A stretch of DNA of 64,000 nucleotides from assembly GCA_023249405.1 (NCBI GenBank), contig JAHFCR010000012.1, forward strand, positions 1-64,000. The letters run 5' to 3'. The DNA comes from Peptococcaceae bacterium. Lineage in GTDB: Bacteria > Bacillota > DSM-12270 > Thermacetogeniales > Thermacetogeniaceae. Under the pieces are notes generated by a model, which was given only the letters and a program-made list of their open reading frames with translations, was not told the DNA's origin and searched no databases. Each line of letters starts with the position of its first letter. Position 1 is the stretch's first letter. A program made the translations under genes and the position numbers. Below, piece by piece: positions 10,922 through 16,520 of this stretch.

Positions 10922-11425
10922 ATGCCCAGAAAAAAGAAGGTTTGCTTGGTGGAGTTTCTTCCCCCTGCCGTCTATTACAAACCGGCGGGGATTCCTTTGC
11001 TGGAATTGGATGAAGTGACCTTGTCGGTGGAAGAGCTTGAGGCCATACGATTGAAGGATCTGGATGGTTTGGACCAGGAGCAATGCGCCGAAAAAATGCA
11101 AGTCGCCCGGACTACATTCCAGCGTGTGTTGTATTCGGCGCACTTAAAAATAGCTACGGCTCTGGTCGATGGCAAGGCTCTGCGCATCGAGGGTGGGCAC
11201 TTTAAGATGCCGTCAGTCAGAAGGTTCAAGTGCACATTCTGCAGCTATGAATTTGAAATCCCCTTCGGCAACGGGCAGAGAGGGATGGAGATCTCCTGCC
11301 CAAAATGCAGTCGGGGACCGGTTCATAGAATCTCTGACGGCGGAGATGGCCGCGTAGAGACATGCGGGTGTGTAAAAGGCAACGGGCAATGCAAAAAAAC
11401 CGTACCTGCTCCGGAATCAGATTAA
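10922..11425 (+). CDS. DUF134-family DNA-binding protein with C-terminal zinc ribbon
   Basis: A 167-residue protein. The N-terminal 95 or so residues match the DUF134 family: PRKKKVCLVEFLPPAVYYKP, then VTLSVEELEAIRLKDLDGLD and a sigma-70 region-4-like helix-turn-helix EQCAEKMQVARTTFQRVLYS. An added C-terminal zinc ribbon has CTFC and CPKC, followed by a Cys-rich tail (ETCGCVKGNGQC). DUF134 proteins often neighbour NifX/NifB-type iron-molybdenum cluster proteins, as here (a NifX-like gene lies 356 nt downstream). A regulatory role in Fe-S or Mo-cofactor-related genes is an inference. Confidence 0.88.
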   Translation: MPRKKKVCLVEFLPPAVYYKPAGIPLLELDEVTLSVEELEAIRLKDLDGLDQEQCAEKMQVARTTFQRVLYSAHLKIATALVDGKALRIEGGHFKMPSVRRFKCTFCSYEFEIPFGNGQRGMEISCPKCSRGPVHRISDGGDGRVETCGCVKGNGQCKKTVPAPESD

Positions 11426-11480
11426 AGGATGACGGTGACGATGATTGTGGAACGGATATAATTAATAATCTTTGCCAACT

Positions 11481-11528
11481 GCACCCACTCTTCCGGTAAT
11501 TAAACGAGGATCAGGGTGCGTTCTTTTT
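11481..11528 (+). terminator. Weak candidate terminator after DUF134 gene
   Basis: GCACCC at 11481 and GGGTGC at 11514 can pair across a long loop and are followed by TTCTTTTT. The large loop makes this uncertain. The rest of the 356-nt gap between the DUF134 and NifX-like genes shows no gene. Confidence 0.3.
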
Positions 11529-11781
11529 AACATGATCAAAAAACCGCCTGGCAATTTATATACTGCCCTTGTAGCACATTCCCCTCAAAGCTGCGCGGCT
11601 GTCATTGCGTTTCTGGCATACGTAAAAATATAAGCTGAAAATATTTGGGCATCGCCTTGCGATAATTGACGATGTGTGGTATTGTTTATTCTTGAAAAGG
11701 GCATATGCCATTTATAGTGAGTTTCTGGTAGCCGCTATAGAGGCAGATGCAAAATAGACAATCAAAACGGGAGGCTTAATC

Positions 11782-12126
11782 ATGAAAATCGCTATGCCGT
11801 ACGACAGGGGCCGCGTAAACCAGCACTTCGGCCAGAGCAGGGAGTTCGCCATCTTTGGGATGGAAGGGGACCGGATTGTTGGCACCAAGATCATCAACAG
11901 CGAAGATTTCTGCCATAACCACGAGGGGCTGGCCGGCTTATTGAAGGCAGAGGAGGTGGAAGCGATCATCCTGGGGGGGATCGGTCACCACATGATGGTC
12001 GCCCTTCAGGATCTGGGCTTCAAGATCGTCACCGGAGCTTCGGGAGACGCGGCCGCTGTGGCTTCAGACTACGCCAGGGGCAGTCTGATTACCAGCGATA
12101 TCGATATCTGCTCTTGCGGCGGGTAA
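11782..12126 (+). CDS. NifX/NifB-type dinitrogenase iron-molybdenum cofactor-binding domain protein
   Basis: A 114-residue stand-alone member of the family that includes NifX, NafY and the NifB C-terminus. It begins KIAMPYDRGRVNQHFGQSREF, with the conserved RVNQHFG core, and has GLAGLLKAEEVEAIILGGIG and a C-terminal CSCGG. In non-diazotrophs these small proteins are of unknown function and often occur near DUF134 or Mrp genes. There is a GGGAGG Shine-Dalgarno sequence 7 nt before the ATG. Confidence 0.88.
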   Translation: MKIAMPYDRGRVNQHFGQSREFAIFGMEGDRIVGTKIINSEDFCHNHEGLAGLLKAEEVEAIILGGIGHHMMVALQDLGFKIVTGASGDAAAVASDYARGSLITSDIDICSCGG

Positions 12127-12261: not shown

Positions 12262-12477
12262 TTATTTGGGAATCTGCATATTTTTGCTGTTGAGGTCCTG
12301 TTGTTTAAACAAGCTGTGCTGGTGCGGAGTCAACGGGACGCCTTCTTCATAGGAGATCTCGATAAAATAATTGCAATCGTTGCTGGCCGCTATTTCTTCT
12401 GGGGCGAGTTTCTTTTTGAACCAGTAGCAGCCCTTGCCGGGAGCTACAAAAAGTCCGCAGTTCTCGCATCCGTGCAT
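12262..12477 (-). CDS. Small four-cysteine protein B (last gene of permease operon)
   Basis: A 71-residue protein starting at the ATG at 12477 (AAGGGG upstream). Pattern: HGCENCGLF, then GKGCYWFKKK, then NDCNYFIEI, and PLTPHQHSLF near the end. The same pattern of Cys and aromatic residues occurs in the 56-residue product at 14854-15024, the first gene of the same operon, so the two are paralogues. The four cysteines suggest a Zn or Fe-S site. I know of no assigned function. Confidence 0.65.
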   Translation of the reverse strand: MHGCENCGLFVAPGKGCYWFKKKLAPEEIAASNDCNYFIEISYEEGVPLTPHQHSLFKQQDLNSKNMQIPK

Positions 12478-12491
12478 AATTAGCCCCTTCT

Positions 12492-12647
12492 CTATTTTTT
12501 CCCGTCCAGGCAACTGTTCTCCTTCCTGATTTTCGGCCACAGGGTGAACTGCAGGAACTGCCACGCCTCTTCCCCGTCATGATCCATGAGGATACCCTGC
12601 AGCCTGACGATCTCTTCCGGTTCCAGGACGACGAACACCTTTTTCAT
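12492..12647 (-). CDS. 51-residue small protein of unknown function
   Basis: The frame starts at an ATG (12647) with GGAGGAG 8 nt upstream and reads MKKVFVVLEPEEIVRLQGIL, then an acidic stretch with WQFLQFTLWPKIR, ending in a TAG. The start overlaps the stop of the Fe-S protein gene by 4 nt, as expected of a coupled operon. It has one cysteine and no recognisable domain. Confidence 0.65.
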   Translation of the reverse strand: MKKVFVVLEPEEIVRLQGILMDHDGEEAWQFLQFTLWPKIRKENSCLDGKK

Positions 12648-13018
12648 AATACTAACTCCTCCCCGGCAGGCAGTTGCCCCCCGAAGTAATCATCGAGTAA
12701 TTTCTGAATTACCTGCCGTTCCTGCTCACGAGAAGGTTCTTGCAAGGCCGGGCACTGTGCCATCTCATACCGCTCCTGGATCAATCCGGTGGCAAATGCC
12801 AGGCAGGTCATCTCACCGCACTCCCTGCAGTTAGTGCGCGGCAGATGTTTGTATAGGGCGTAGGGGCTGAGTTGCGGCCGAGGTCTGGTTGAAGGGGTGA
12901 TGTTGTCTCGCTCCCGGGTGACCTTGTTCAGGATTTTGATCACGTTATCCAGGATCTCTTTGACTTTATCGATGTTTTCAGTCTTGCCGACAGTAATCTG
13001 ATCGGCTCCCACGATCAC
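12644..13018 (-). CDS. Fe-S protein with AcsC/RnfB-type 4Fe-4S domain
   Basis: A 124-residue protein. The C-terminal half carries the PF04060-type cluster motif LPRTNCRECGEMTCLAFA with a fourth Cys in MAQCP (Cys64, Cys67, Cys72, Cys89). The spacing is identical to that in the N-terminus of AcsC at 25039 in this window. The N-terminal half (VGADQITVGKTENIDKVKEI) is helical and unassigned. The GTG start at 13018 overlaps the stop of the preceding DGC-like fragment (GTGA), so translation may be coupled. Proteins of this type accompany COG0701 permeases in anaerobes; an electron-transfer role is inferred. Confidence 0.75.
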   Translation of the reverse strand: MIVGADQITVGKTENIDKVKEILDNVIKILNKVTRERDNITPSTRPRPQLSPYALYKHLPRTNCRECGEMTCLAFATGLIQERYEMAQCPALQEPSREQERQVIQKLLDDYFGGQLPAGEELVL

Positions 13019-13140
13019 CGGGCGCTTCTCGTCCCGCTGAGCACCATTGCCGCCTTGTTCGAGATCTGTCCCACGTTGGAAGCACCCGAACAGGCGCAGA
13101 TGAGGGCTTTTCCACCGTTGCAGAGACAGTTTTCGGCCAT
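13015..13140 (-). pseudogene. N-terminal fragment of a DGC-type putative zinc-binding protein
   Basis: An ATG at 13140, preceded by GGAGGAGGAG, opens a frame reading MAENCLCNGGKALICACSGA followed by SNVGQISNKAAM. This matches the N-terminus of DGC-domain proteins (CSGASxVGxI...A). It ends after 41 codons at a TGA, where the family normally runs past 100 residues with a CLAG motif and a DGCP motif that are absent here. Either an internal deletion or frameshift has removed most of the gene, or the short form is a functional peptide. The strong ribosome-binding site argues that it is still translated, which may couple translation into the Fe-S protein gene. Confidence 0.55.
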
Positions 13141-13182
13141 TTAGTTTCTCCTCCTCCGGATAGTCTCAAGAGTTATTCTTGA

Positions 13183-13419
13183 TTACTTTCCTTGCAGCCA
13201 GTTCTTGATCTCCTGCTGGCTGGGAATACGTCCCTCGCTCTTAACAACTCCGTCGATGACGACCCCCGGCGTGCTCATCACGCCATGCTCCATGATTTTG
13301 GCAATGTCTTCGACTTTGGTGACCGACGCCTCGATCCTCAGTTCGGCCACCGCACTCCTCACATTTTCCTCAAGCTTCTTGCACTTGATGCAGCCAGTCC
13401 CCAAAACCTCGATATCCAT
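13183..13419 (-). CDS. Small thioredoxin-like redox-active disulfide protein
   Basis: A 78-residue mini-thioredoxin (redox-active disulfide protein 2 type) with the motif GTGCIKCKKLEE (Cys10 and Cys13) and the cis-Pro region STPGVVIDG. The ATG at 13419 is 9 nt after AGGAGG; an upstream ATG is too close to that site. Proteins of this type are habitually encoded next to ArsR and COG0701 permeases and probably reduce a partner in that system. Confidence 0.88.
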   Translation of the reverse strand: MDIEVLGTGCIKCKKLEENVRSAVAELRIEASVTKVEDIAKIMEHGVMSTPGVVIDGVVKSEGRIPSQQEIKNWLQGK

Positions 13420-13445
13420 TGAAGTCATCCTCCTCTGAAAGAGTC

Positions 13446-13805
13446 TTATGCCTCATCTCCGGGCAATACCAAAGCCGCCAGTTCCTGCTCCTTGTTGGCC
13501 AGGTCTGCTTTCAGCACCCGGTCAATGCAGGAAAACATATTGACGATACAGGGCGTGCGCAACTGGCACAACACTCTCGTTCCCTCCCGGCGGGTAGCGA
13601 TCAGCCCGGCATTCTTTAGGATGGCCAGGTGCTTCGAAAGAGAAGGCTGGTCGCAATTCAGGGACTCTACCAGTTCGCAGGCACAACGCTCCTCGTCGGC
13701 GCTGAGCAGGTCGATGATCGCCAGGCGCAACGGGTGCGCCAGGGCCTTGATCACCTGGGCACGATGAAAATAGAGTTCTTGGTTGATCTTAAACACCTCC
13801 CTCAT
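13446..13805 (-). CDS. ArsR-family transcriptional regulator
   Basis: A 119-residue winged-helix regulator. KALAHPLRLAIIDLL is followed by ERCACELVE, the place of the ELCVCDL metal(loid)-binding motif in ArsR, and the recognition helix QPSLSKHLAILKNAGLI. Further Cys occur in VLCQL, TPCIV and FSCID, giving enough thiols for an arsenite-like or soft-metal site. The ATG directly follows the TAA of the permease gene, so the pair is co-translated. It probably represses the whole operon. Confidence 0.9.
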   Translation of the reverse strand: MREVFKINQELYFHRAQVIKALAHPLRLAIIDLLSADEERCACELVESLNCDQPSLSKHLAILKNAGLIATRREGTRVLCQLRTPCIVNMFSCIDRVLKADLANKEQELAALVLPGDEA

Positions 13806-14774
13806 TTATGCCCCCAGCAGGTGATGGACAAAGACAAAATTGAACAAGTAGCCGATGAAGATGATGGCGACAGTGATGATGCCTACAAAGATGGCGATCA
13901 TCTTCGGCTTGATCACCTTGCGCAGGATGATCATCTCCGGCGTGGAGATGGCCACCACGGCCATCATGAAAGCCAGGGCGGTCCCCAGGGGCATCCCTTT
14001 GCCCACCAGGGCCTGCACGATGGGGATCGTGCCGGCTGCGTTGGAGTATAGGGGGATAGCGATCAGGACGGCGATGATCACGGCGAAGGGATTGCCCGGG
14101 CCGGCATATTTTACAATGAAGTCGATCGGCGCATAGCCATGGATGAGCGCCCCCAGGCCAATACCGATGATCACGAACAGCCAGACCCGCTTCAGGATAT
14201 CCTTAGTGTAATCCCGGGCGTACTCGAACCGCTCCCGCCAAGTGAGAACAACCTCTTCTCTATCTCCTACCTTTATCTTGTAGACATAATCCTCGACCAA
14301 GTGCTCAAGTTTCAGTTTCCCAATCACGATGCCGCCGATGAAGGCCAGGATGACGCCGGTGGCAACGTACAGGAGAGCGATATCCCAGCCGAACAGGCCC
14401 CAGAGCATGATCAGCGCCACCTCGTTGACCGTCGGCGAGGAGATTAGAAAGGAAAAGGTCACCCCCAGCGGCAGCCCCGATTCGATAAAGCCGATGAACA
14501 GGGGGACCGCCGAACAGGAGCAGAACGGGGTGACGATGCCCAGCAGGGAGGCCAACAGGTTCCCCACGTACTCGCGCTTGTTGCCGAGCAGCCGGCGCGC
14601 CCGCTCCGGCGGAAAGAAGCTGCGGATCACGGCCACAACAAAGATGATGACAGTGAGCAGCAAAAATATCTTCACGGTGTCGTAAAAGAAGAAGTCCAAA
14701 GAAGAGCCCAATTCTGTCCCCGGATGGATCACCAACAGCCGGTAGACCAGCAGATCCGCAAGCGCCTGCAGCAT
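13806..14774 (-). CDS. COG0701 permease (ArsP/YraQ-like, DUF318)
   Basis: A 322-residue membrane protein with about eight to ten hydrophobic segments. The family signature TPFCSCSAVPLFIGF includes the conserved Cys pair, and SFLISSPTVNEVALIM follows; the second repeat has IPLYSNAAGTIPIVQAL and STPEMIILRK. ArsP members export trivalent organoarsenicals, but for most COG0701 proteins the substrate is unknown. The ATG at 14774 is preferred (AAGG 9 nt upstream). The arsR gene follows without a gap, and the next genes encode thioredoxin-like and Fe-S proteins. Confidence 0.88.
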   Translation of the reverse strand: MLQALADLLVYRLLVIHPGTELGSSLDFFFYDTVKIFLLLTVIIFVVAVIRSFFPPERARRLLGNKREYVGNLLASLLGIVTPFCSCSAVPLFIGFIESGLPLGVTFSFLISSPTVNEVALIMLWGLFGWDIALLYVATGVILAFIGGIVIGKLKLEHLVEDYVYKIKVGDREEVVLTWRERFEYARDYTKDILKRVWLFVIIGIGLGALIHGYAPIDFIVKYAGPGNPFAVIIAVLIAIPLYSNAAGTIPIVQALVGKGMPLGTALAFMMAVVAISTPEMIILRKVIKPKMIAIFVGIITVAIIFIGYLFNFVFVHHLLGA

Positions 14775-14853
14775 ATGTATCAACCTTCTTTCGTCAAGAC
14801 TTCTTTCCCGGTATTATGACGCCATCCTGCCAGGACAGCTAAATAGGCAGGTG

Positions 14854-15024
14854 TCACTTTCTGGTAGCCATCTCCGTTTCCGTGATCAAGAGGTACTGGT
14901 ATGGAGTGTAATCCTGGTCGGGCATAATCTTGGTGAAATAGAAACAGCCCCAGTCCCACGAGGTCTCGTCCGGCGGCCTTGCTCGGCCATGCTTGAAACA
15001 GAAATAGGTTCCTTCAGGCTCCAT
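14854..15024 (-). CDS. Small cysteine protein A (paralogue of the last gene of the operon)
   Basis: The frame ending at TGA (14854) reads MEPEGTYFCFKHGRARPPDE, then WDWGCFYFTKI and DYTPYQYLLI. Upstream of this ATG the same frame continues with KICQVCALARK to a stop, so the CxxC pair expected from the paralogue at 12262-12477 lies before the only good start codon. The codon at the natural N-terminus is ATA (15058-15060), not ATG. Either translation begins at an unusual codon or the start has been lost by a point mutation. It lies 80 bp upstream of the permease start, on the same strand. Confidence 0.55.
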   Translation of the reverse strand: MEPEGTYFCFKHGRARPPDETSWDWGCFYFTKIMPDQDYTPYQYLLITETEMATRK

Positions 15025-15235
15025 CTTCCGGGCAAGCGCACAGACTTGACAAATTTTTATTCACTGCAGTAGCCGCCTCCTGATCAAGGCTTCGTCAACC
15101 GTCTCCGCAACTGGAACAGCTCTGTAAACACAAGAGAATAGTTACCCTTGTTTAATTGTATGTTTCAATCTTATATGCTAATATTAGCATTATAGAATTA
15201 TTATTTCAATATGATTGTTGACGGAGGGGAAAGGA

Positions 15236-15675
15236 ATGTTGAAGTATGCCTTGATTGCCGACATTCACGGAAATCACCTGGCTTTACAGGCCGTGCTAGA
15301 CGAAATCGGTAAGCGCGGTGTTGACGGAGTGTATTGCCTGGGGGACTTGGTGGGCTATGCCCCTTTTCCCAATGAGGCGATCTAGATCATCAACGGGGAG
15401 GGCATACCCACGGTGATGGGCAACTACGATGATGGGGCAGGCTTTGACCGCCTGGTGTGTGGCTGCGATTTCCCTGACGATGCGGTCAGGATCAACGGGG
15501 AGCAGTCCCTGTCCTGGACAAAATCTCATACCACGGCGCCAATAAGGAGTTTCTACGCAGCCTACCCAAAGAGATCCAGATCGAGGCGGGATATCACATG
15601 CTTCTGGTGCATGGCAGCCCTAGGGCACTGAATGAGTACATCCATAATAATTCTCGGATAGCCAAATCAAAATAA
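15236..15675 (+). pseudogene. Metallophosphoesterase (YfcE/MJ0936-like), broken
   Basis: The frame begins [20 protein letters not shown] with the metal-binding DxHGN motif, then [17 protein letters not shown]. An in-frame TAG stands at 15383-15385, after which GIPTVMGNYDD (the GNxD motif) continues in frame. Near 15520 the reading frame changes (KISYHGANKEFLRSLPKE, then MLLVHGSPRALNEYI) and it stops early at 15675, so the last metal-binding GHTH region is missing. One nonsense codon, one frameshift and a C-terminal loss make this a true pseudogene. It has an intact GGAGGGGAAAGGA ribosome-binding region. Confidence 0.85.
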
Positions 15676-15677
15676 GT

Positions 15678-16520
15678 TCATGCTCTCTGGACAATGATGC
15701 TCCCGATCGGTTGTCCGGTATCCCTGGCTATGGTAGGGCACTTTACCCGCAAGAGGAAAAAAATATTATAATGGGAGTTGCGCAGTGTCTCGTAGTTTTC
15801 TTGTCCCTTTGAGATGACGAGATCTGCCTGCTCAAAGGCATTTTTAAATTCTGAAGAGCACAGTTTCATCAGCGTGCCCGGGGTATCCGCCCCGGTACTG
15901 ATCACTCTCACCAGCCCGGTTAAACCGGCAAAAATTGCATCCTCCATCGTGGCGTCGTTGATTATGGGCCCGCTCTTGACGGCATAGGTGATCTTCTCTA
16001 AGGGAAGAAGTTCAACCAGCAATTTGTCAAAGATGATCTCTCCGGCATTGTCTCCGATATAAAGTATTTTCTTGGACTCTGCGATGGCATGATCAAATAT
16101 CTCAAGGTGATCGATGGCAAACGGCTTGGTCAGCACATCCTTGATTGCAGTGTGAACTGTCGCGCTATCACGGATGGCGAAATCGATTATGTTGCCGGCA
16201 ATCGCCAGCCTTACGGCCGTTTCCAGGGGATTAGGCGAGTTCAGAACCATTTGTTTTAGTTCTGGATACATCTCTTGCGCAAGTTGGTTGTACTCTATCT
16301 TCATTAAATTGTATGGATCGGGGCATTTCGTTTCCCTCTTGACGATATTGTGGGCCATATAGCCGAGCTGGGCTGGATACTGAGTCAGCGAGGTCCGGGA
16401 GAATGCGTCCAACAGGCTCCTGATAATGTTTTCCTGTATAGGTTCATCGGCCCCGGCCATGCGCGAGGCATCCAGAGCCTGTCTCAATAAGCAGGGAATG
16501 CAATCGAGAAAAGCATTCAT
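15678..16520 (-). CDS. DUF89-family protein (putative metal-dependent damage-control phosphatase)
   Basis: A 280-residue member of the DUF89/ARMT1-like family of the shorter prokaryotic type. It starts with MNAFLDCIPCLLRQAL, which has the conserved CxxC, and the metal/phosphate site is visible in ILYIGDNAGEIIFDKLL, followed by VISTGADTPGT and DLVISKGQENYETL. Family members hydrolyse phosphorylated or otherwise damaged metabolites, with Asp and Asn binding a divalent metal. It is transcribed convergently with the phosphoesterase pseudogene, 2 nt apart. Confidence 0.9.
   Translation of the reverse strand: MNAFLDCIPCLLRQALDASRMAGADEPIQENIIRSLLDAFSRTSLTQYPAQLGYMAHNIVKRETKCPDPYNLMKIEYNQLAQEMYPELKQMVLNSPNPLETAVRLAIAGNIIDFAIRDSATVHTAIKDVLTKPFAIDHLEIFDHAIAESKKILYIGDNAGEIIFDKLLVELLPLEKITYAVKSGPIINDATMEDAIFAGLTGLVRVISTGADTPGTLMKLCSSEFKNAFEQADLVISKGQENYETLRNSHYNIFFLLRVKCPTIARDTGQPIGSIIVQRA

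What the first reader, a model, noticed from the sequence alone, without database searches (positions are those of the whole stretch)
12262..15060. Cysteine-rich permease operon framed by two paralogous mini-proteins
On the minus strand, in order of transcription: a 56-residue Cys protein, COG0701 permease, ArsR, mini-thioredoxin, DGC-type fragment, AcsC-like 4Fe-4S protein, 51-residue protein, 71-residue Cys protein. The first and last share C-x2-C, then C[YF][WF]K or FCFK, then a Cys followed by an aromatic pair, then TP[HY]Q, so they are paralogues at both ends of one operon. Permease, ArsR and thioredoxin are known companions. The two four-Cys proteins and the 51-residue protein are not part of any system I can name. 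Hypothesis: a thiol/Fe-S-dependent module for handling a soft metal, metalloid or organometal.
Basis: partly seen in the sequence, partly recalled or inferred. Interest (0 to 1): 0.72.

Follow-up and report, generated by a model that had tools for sequence, protein, structure and literature searches.

The report
New selenoprotein in arsenic-resistance gene clusters
One of the two small cysteine-rich proteins in this gene cluster appears to be a previously undescribed protein that uses the rare amino acid selenocysteine just before its end; its relatives sit in arsenic-resistance gene clusters of anaerobic bacteria, which points to selenium-assisted handling of arsenic.

Summary
Protein A (called 56 residues) does not end at its TGA. 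In 18 intact copies from 17 genomes the TGA is always there, followed by 3-5 codons and then TAA/TAG. The codons after the TGA change almost only synonymously, and a hairpin with strong compensatory changes fits the bacterial SECIS model. The genome has selA, selB and tRNA-Sec. A is therefore very probably a selenoprotein with selenocysteine near its C-terminus, absent from Pfam, NCBIfam, PDB and a 2026 catalogue of 119 selenoprotein families. Paralogue B carries Met there. Both keep CX2C...C...C, as in small [4Fe-4S] subunits. Relatives lie beside ArsR (CVCEL motif), ACR3, ArsP-type permease, ArsE-type thioredoxin, ArsC or ArsA/D, and a cysteine desulfurase-FeS fusion. The window's DGC fragment and 'AcsC-like' protein are remnants of a deletion that removed the desulfurase, and A's start codon is one base out of frame, so this copy may be damaged or misassembled. 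The selenoprotein call and arsenic context are well supported; the biochemical role (arsenite/organoarsenical binding or redox relay) is inferred.

The parts
14839..15057 (-). Protein A: small CX2C-X13-C-X17-C protein with in-frame TGA (selenocysteine) near the C-terminus, ...MATRK-U-HLPI-TAG
   Evidence: profile match across the TGA E 7e-40
14854..14856 (-). TGA codon read as selenocysteine (predicted)
   Evidence: TGA in 18/18 intact homologues, never TAA/TAG; next stop always TAA/TAG
14821..14839 (-). bSECIS-like hairpin GCTGTCCT-GGC-AGGATGGC, loop 22 nt after the TGA
   Evidence: Covariation score 0.681 vs 0.216 shuffled; 6 of 7 pairs with double changes; model constraints of PMC13188914 met by 17/18
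15062..15064 (-). Likely GTG start of A, one base out of frame with the conserved reading (A5 run)
   Evidence: Comparison with upstream DNA of relatives, e.g. L064
13806..14774 (-). ArsP_1 (COG0701) permease, TPFCSCSA motif
   Evidence: PF03773 270.7 bits; SaoE 141 bits, below its cut-off of 325
13446..13805 (-). ArsR/SmtB repressor with C-x-C-x9-C (ERCACELVESLNC)
   Evidence: NF033788 89.9 bits; motif conserved in the A-linked ArsR group
13183..13419 (-). ArsE/MTH895-type mini-thioredoxin
   Evidence: TIGR00412 113.5 bits over cut-off
13015..13140 (-). Remnant of DGC-domain protein (N-terminal 37 residues)
   Evidence: PF08859 positions 1-25 of 106; full length in relatives
12644..13018 (-). 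Remnant: C-terminal part of cysteine desulfurase-FeS fusion (PF04060)
12492..12647 (-). 51-residue conserved protein of unknown family
   Evidence: 71-84% identity in relatives, 36-48% in G296 and G358; no Pfam/NCBIfam match above cut-off
12262..12477 (-). Protein B: 71-residue paralogue of A, Met at the Sec column

Best explanation
Shown by comparison: A is translated through its UGA, and a conserved hairpin just after the gene has the form of a bacterial SECIS element, so A is very probably a selenoprotein with Sec four residues before its C-terminal residue; A and its Met-bearing paralogue B belong to arsenic-resistance clusters of Sec-using anaerobes. Inferred: the four invariant Cys hold a [4Fe-4S] cluster or a metal in a HiPIP-like or zinc-ribbon-like domain, the C-terminal helix presents the selenolate on a short flexible tail, and this selenolate binds or redox-cycles trivalent arsenic (As(III) or methylarsenite) and passes it to ACR3 or the ArsP-type permease. 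The ArsE-type thioredoxin would re-reduce the Sec, and the cysteine desulfurase-FeS fusion (with SufC/SufBD-like proteins in one locus) would supply the clusters. ArsR would derepress the operon on As(III).
For: Sec decoding: TGA in 18/18 intact copies from 17 genomes, against 36/116 (31%) TGA among stops of long ORFs in the class loci. Second stop always TAA/TAG. Post-TGA codons: 70% of codon differences synonymous vs 16% after column shuffling (0/2000); Leu by six codons, Pro by all four. Hairpin covariation 0.681 vs 0.216 +/- 0.044, 0/500. Constrained hairpin in 17/18 A, 2/15 B, 26/298 background stops. Alignment runs without a shift through the Sec column into B's C-terminus. selA 594 bits and selB 384 bits and tRNA-Sec 70.9 bits, all on contig C144 of the own genome. 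Arsenic context: ACR3 (TIGR00832, 438-465 bits), ArsD, ArsA, ArsC next to A/B in several families; CVCEL-type ArsR. Fe-S link: desulfurase TIGR01977 465 bits over cut-off, fused to an FeS domain; SUFBD_core and an ABC ATPase between A and B in G177.
Against: No Cys homologue at the Sec column was found; paralogues have Met or Leu, which is unusual. Nothing directly shows arsenic binding. The fold comparison is weak: no PDB match at E<=0.001; the highest TM-score among the listed matches is the small subunit of a glycyl radical enzyme, 2y8n_B, TM 0.44, E 3.6. The window copy lacks the desulfurase and its start is out of frame. tRNA-Sec is common in the phylum (256/399), so its presence alone is weak evidence.
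Confidence: 0.6

Rival explanations
1. A is a selenoprotein of the arsenic island, but Sec is a catalytic redox residue (for example reducing As(V), methylarsenate or a disulfide partner, fed by the Fe-S cluster and thioredoxin) and not an arsenic ligand or carrier.
For: Most known selenoproteins are thought to be redox-active (PMC13188914); an ArsE-type thioredoxin is in most clusters, and DsbD-like proteins in some.
Against: U is not in a CxxU/UxxC motif; it stands alone on a tail after a helix. ArsC-type arsenate reductase is already present in some clusters.
Confidence: 0.3
2. The module protects or rebuilds Fe-S clusters, or moves Se/S, under arsenic stress, with the desulfurase (TIGR01977, related to Sec lyase SclA) as the key enzyme and A/B as cluster carriers.
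For: Desulfurase fused to an FeS domain; SUFBD_core and an ABC ATPase between A and B in G177; SclA model scores 357 bits, below its cut-off of 525.
Against: Several A or B loci have ACR3 or the permease but no desulfurase within 6 kb (e.g. L048, L058, L060, L144, L145, L152, L154).
Confidence: 0.2
3. The TGA is an ordinary stop and the hairpin is a transcription or mRNA-stability element.
For: The hairpin lies just after the ORF end; selenoprotein calls from sequence alone can be false.
Against: Codons after the TGA evolve synonymously in that frame and not in the other two; paralogue B aligns over the same tail; no T-run follows the hairpin; TAA/TAG never replaces the TGA.
Confidence: 0.06
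4. The window copy is a decaying, non-functional operon (deletion through DGC/desulfurase plus a frameshift in A), while the system works in relatives. This is compatible with the main explanation.
For: Out-of-frame GTG; truncated DGC and FeS ORFs; no ACR3 match in the window.
Against: The other frames, the TGA tail and the hairpin are intact; both lesions could be assembly errors in a 168-contig draft.
Confidence: 0.4

Closest known systems
SAO (selenocysteine-assisted organometal) operons, Haft & Gwadz 2023
   Same: Selenoproteins next to a COG0701/ArsP_1-type permease (SaoE) and a thioredoxin-like protein in anaerobes; metal(loid) theme
   Different: Permease scores 141 vs SaoE cut-off 325; A matches none of the Sao selenoprotein models in NCBIfam; no Sao ABC transporter or MerB-like lyase noticed in the loci. 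The original paper was not held; its content is known here only through the review PMC13188914 and NCBIfam
ArsR-ACR3/ArsP arsenic-resistance operons
   Same: ArsR with C-x-C motif, ACR3, ArsA/D, ArsC, ArsP-type permease, ArsE-type thioredoxin as neighbours
   Different: Adds two unnamed small Fe-S-like proteins, one with Sec, a 51-aa protein and a desulfurase-FeS fusion
Selenoprotein forms of ArsM and arsenate reductase (PMC13188914 Table 1)
   Same: Sec in arsenic-related proteins
   Different: Those are Sec versions of known enzymes (motifs UxxG, UxxS, UxxC); A is an unrelated small family with no Cys form found
CX2CXnCXnC small subunits of glycyl radical enzymes (HPAD gamma, BSS gamma, MASS gamma/beta; HiPIP-like [4Fe-4S])
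   Same: Same four-Cys order and size; best TM-score in the listed fold matches is 2y8n_B; motif and fold described in PMC12358834
   Different: No sequence match in PDB; no glycyl radical enzyme noticed in the loci; A has a C-terminal helix with Sec
Dual CXXC small (seleno)protein OS_HP3/DW (NF041197)
   Same: Small Cys-rich protein, Sec after a basic residue (RxU)
   Different: No match of A, B or distant members to NF041197 or any NCBIfam model at E<=10

Membership tests
Selenoprotein | In-frame UGA conserved, with homology continuing beyond it | tested here: met
   18/18 intact copies; alignment through the Sec column; synonymous tail codons
Selenoprotein | bSECIS: 3-9 nt loop, 4-16 bp stem, G in the first two loop positions, 16-37 nt from UGA, MFE <= -7.5 | tested here: met
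   Loop, stem, G and spacing met in 17/18 (G351 fails the G rule); the window copy reaches -10.2 kcal/mol; several relatives fall between -5.6 and -7.4, so the energy limit is not met by all; covariation; model
Selenoprotein | Host has SelA, SelB, tRNA-Sec (SelD) | tested here: met
   selA and selB, tRNA-Sec; selD not searched; S. schinkii selABCD reported in PMC4642661
Selenoprotein | Cys-containing homologues at the Sec position | tested here: not met
   Met or Leu in all 13 aligned non-Sec members; usual for selenoproteins but not a requirement
Selenoprotein | Se in the protein (75Se or mass spectrometry) | not testable with these tools
   Experiment needed
SAO system | SaoE equivalog permease and Sao selenoproteins | tested here: not met
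   141 vs cut-off 325 for SaoE; no Sao selenoprotein model matches A
Arsenic-resistance (ars) cluster | Arsenite-sensing ArsR plus arsenite/organoarsenical efflux gene | tested here: met
   28 of 30 A/B loci have ArsR, ACR3 or ArsP_1 within 6 kb; CVCEL motif; in the window itself only ArsR plus the ArsP_1 permease
Arsenic-resistance (ars) cluster | Confers arsenic resistance / induced by As(III) | not testable with these tools
   No expression or phenotype data
HiPIP-like small [4Fe-4S] subunits | CX2CXnCXnC | tested here: met
   Only C3, C6, C20 and C38 are invariant in 31 sequences
HiPIP-like small [4Fe-4S] subunits | Same fold | tested here: inconclusive
   AF2 pLDDT 86.5; 2y8n_B TM 0.44 but E 3.6
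TIGR01977 cysteine desulfurase family (relatives' operon) | Score over curated cut-off | tested here: met
   464.8 vs 377 for the L050 protein; absent in the window because of the deletion

The most novel reading that the evidence does not exclude
A new selenoprotein family dedicated to arsenite/organoarsenical efflux clusters, in which an Fe-S-type small protein carries its only Sec on a C-terminal tail, works as a pair with a paralogue that has Met in place of Sec (not Cys), and is matured by a cluster-encoded desulfurase-FeS fusion.
Probability: 0.35. Interest if true: 0.85.

Novelty: new variant of a known kind. Interest (0 to 1): 0.74.

Why it matters
Selenoproteins are easily missed because annotation stops at UGA. 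This one forms a family with no model in Pfam or NCBIfam and no entry in a 2026 catalogue of 119 selenoprotein families, and it ties selenium to arsenic efflux clusters in syntrophic acetate oxidisers and other anaerobes. It gives a directly testable case of selenium used against arsenic, and an odd Sec/Met paralogue pair.

Tried and rejected
Archaeal hit L073: stops in frame, chance match. G055, G129, G048 and similar weak hits: stops or partial matches, not used. G100 hit: could not be confirmed at its locus. Plasmid collection: no match for A or B. PDB by sequence: none. Hairpin as intrinsic terminator: rejected, no T-run. Co-occurrence with tRNA-Sec as proof: 256/399 background, so weak. 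A search in the class of G177 added only G177 itself. G005 second A copy (C1:2093287) is broken and was left out of counts. The Haft & Gwadz 2023 and Haft & Tolstoy 2025 texts were not held.
Full report
Observation. The minus-strand cluster is present as described: small Cys protein A, COG0701 permease, ArsR, mini-thioredoxin, DGC fragment, FeS-domain protein, 51-aa protein, small Cys protein B. Family scans identify the permease (PF03773, 270.7 bits), ArsR (NF033788), thioredoxin (TIGR00412) and FeS domain (PF04060); A, B and the 51-aa protein match nothing above a cut-off. A and B are homologous by BLASTP (E 7e-5) and by profiles (97.9%).

The missed feature. A search of relatives with B returned many A copies with one TGA inside the match. 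Read out, the TGA always lies at the end of the annotated frame: [RK]-K-TGA-[HR]-[LP]-P-[TIFV]-TAA/TAG in the own family (one copy lacks the last residue), and K-TGA-[KR]-L-P-[ML]-G-TAG or K-TGA-S-V-I(-K)-TAG in four genomes of other families. In the window this is TGA 14856-14854, then HLPI, then TAG. In all, 18 intact copies from 17 genomes have TGA and none has TAA or TAG there. Among stops of long ORFs in the same class loci TGA makes up 36 of 116.

Translation past the TGA. The three codons after it differ between species mostly synonymously: 70% of codon differences are silent against 16% after shuffling columns (0 of 2000 as high). Leu is written with six codons and Pro with all four, and the other two frames show no such pattern. 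The alignment of A with B runs without a shift through the Sec column to the end of both proteins.

SECIS. Each gene is followed at once by a hairpin whose apical loop lies 17-23 nt after the TGA. On 16 copies with a common register, pairing is 91% against 69% shuffled, the covariation score is 0.681 against 0.216 (0 of 500), every slid version stays at or below 0.229, and 6 of 7 pairs have double changes. The published bacterial model asks for a 3-9 nt loop, G in its first two positions and 16-37 nt spacing (PMC13188914); 17 of 18 fit, and a hairpin of this kind is found at 17 of 18 A genes against 2 of 15 B genes and 26 of 298 background stops. Predicted energies of several relatives (-5.6 to -7.4 kcal/mol) are a little weaker than the model's -7.5. 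No T-run follows, so it is not an intrinsic terminator. The own genome carries selA (594 bits), selB (384 bits) and tRNA-Sec (70.9 bits) on one contig. S. schinkii, which has an A copy, is reported to have selABCD (PMC4642661). tRNA-Sec is frequent in the phylum (256/399), so this is necessary but weak support.

Distribution and company. In an even draw of 399 genomes of the phylum, about 21 carry clear A or B members, about half of them outside the own class; A-type members with TGA outside it are G264, G287, G177 and G351. Named contigs are Syntrophaceticus schinkii, Thermacetogenium sp. and related MAGs. Of 30 intact A/B loci, 28 have ArsR, the ArsP_1 permease or ACR3 within 6 kb; ACR3 is in 18, the permease in 20, ArsR in 24 (my tally of its table). 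ACR3, ArsD, ArsA and ArsC were confirmed by curated models in sampled loci. The A-linked ArsR group has C-x-C-x9-C and most others have CVCEL/CVCDL, the arsenite sensor motif (motif meaning from general knowledge). ArsP of other bacteria exports methylarsenite (PMC11653729).

The deletion. In relatives the space between the DGC start and the FeS end holds the rest of the DGC protein and a cysteine desulfurase (TIGR01977, 465 bits, cut-off 377) fused to the FeS domain (575-581 aa). In the window only the first 37 or so DGC residues and the last 124 residues of the fusion remain. The GTG that should start A is one base out of frame in an A5 run. Whether these are real lesions or assembly errors in a 168-contig draft cannot be told here.

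How it may work. Only four Cys are invariant in 31 A/B sequences, in the CX2CXnCXnC order of small [4Fe-4S] HiPIP-like subunits of glycyl radical enzymes (PMC12358834). The predicted model (pLDDT 86.5) is a small beta-rich Cys domain, then a helix, then a short tail with Sec; the best TM-score in the listed matches is such a subunit (2y8n_B, 0.44), but no match is significant. I infer that the selenolate on the tail binds or redox-cycles trivalent arsenic for efflux, with the thioredoxin as reductant and the desulfurase-FeS protein (plus SUFBD_core and ABC ATPase in G177) as cluster supply. My estimates: Sec identity about 0.9, arsenic role about 0.75, this specific role about 0.35.

Novelty. 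No Pfam, NCBIfam (release June 2026, E<=10), PDB or plasmid match, and not among the 119 families of the 2026 catalogue as far as names, motifs and NCBIfam models show. Selenoproteins in metal(loid) resistance are a known kind (SAO, ArsM, ArsC forms), so this is a new variant; the family itself and its Sec/Met pairing look undescribed. The two Haft papers were not readable here, but NCBIfam models cited for their families in the catalogue were in the release scanned.

Noticed in passing
window 15215-15650 (+): Broken metallophosphoesterase gene (fragments [14 protein letters not shown]... and the following ORF); a similar longer gene lies between ACR3 and B in G133 (L152:5396-6160).
   Followed up: partly
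window 15678-16520 (-): DUF89-type damage-control phosphatase relative (180 bits, below the model's cut-off) upstream of the cluster.
   Followed up: partly
window 10922-12126 (+): DUF134 regulator and a dinitrogenase FeMo-co-type (NifX/MrpORP-like) protein lie convergent to the cluster.
   Followed up: no
L144:1619-2833, L151:7226-8614, L152:2702-3856: A radical SAM protein near A or B in three genomes (the L151 one resembles a tungsten cofactor oxidoreductase maturase, 308 bits, below cut-off; the L152 one judged by eye only).
   Followed up: partly
L148:6653-7831, L149:7082-8308, L151:8973-10148: Similar MFS transporters (..VMADNWVVSPILP..) recur near B in three families; a possible further efflux partner.
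   Followed up: no
L146:7868-9515: An ABC ATPase and a SUFBD_core protein lie between A and B, inside an island with ACR3, ArsD and two ArsA-like genes.
   Followed up: partly
G005:C1:2093287-2093394 (L155): A broken second A copy, its conserved tail after the TGA lost.
   Followed up: partly
L046 and L062: G011 carries two near-identical B operons on different contigs, each with desulfurase, FeS part and 51-aa protein.
   Followed up: no
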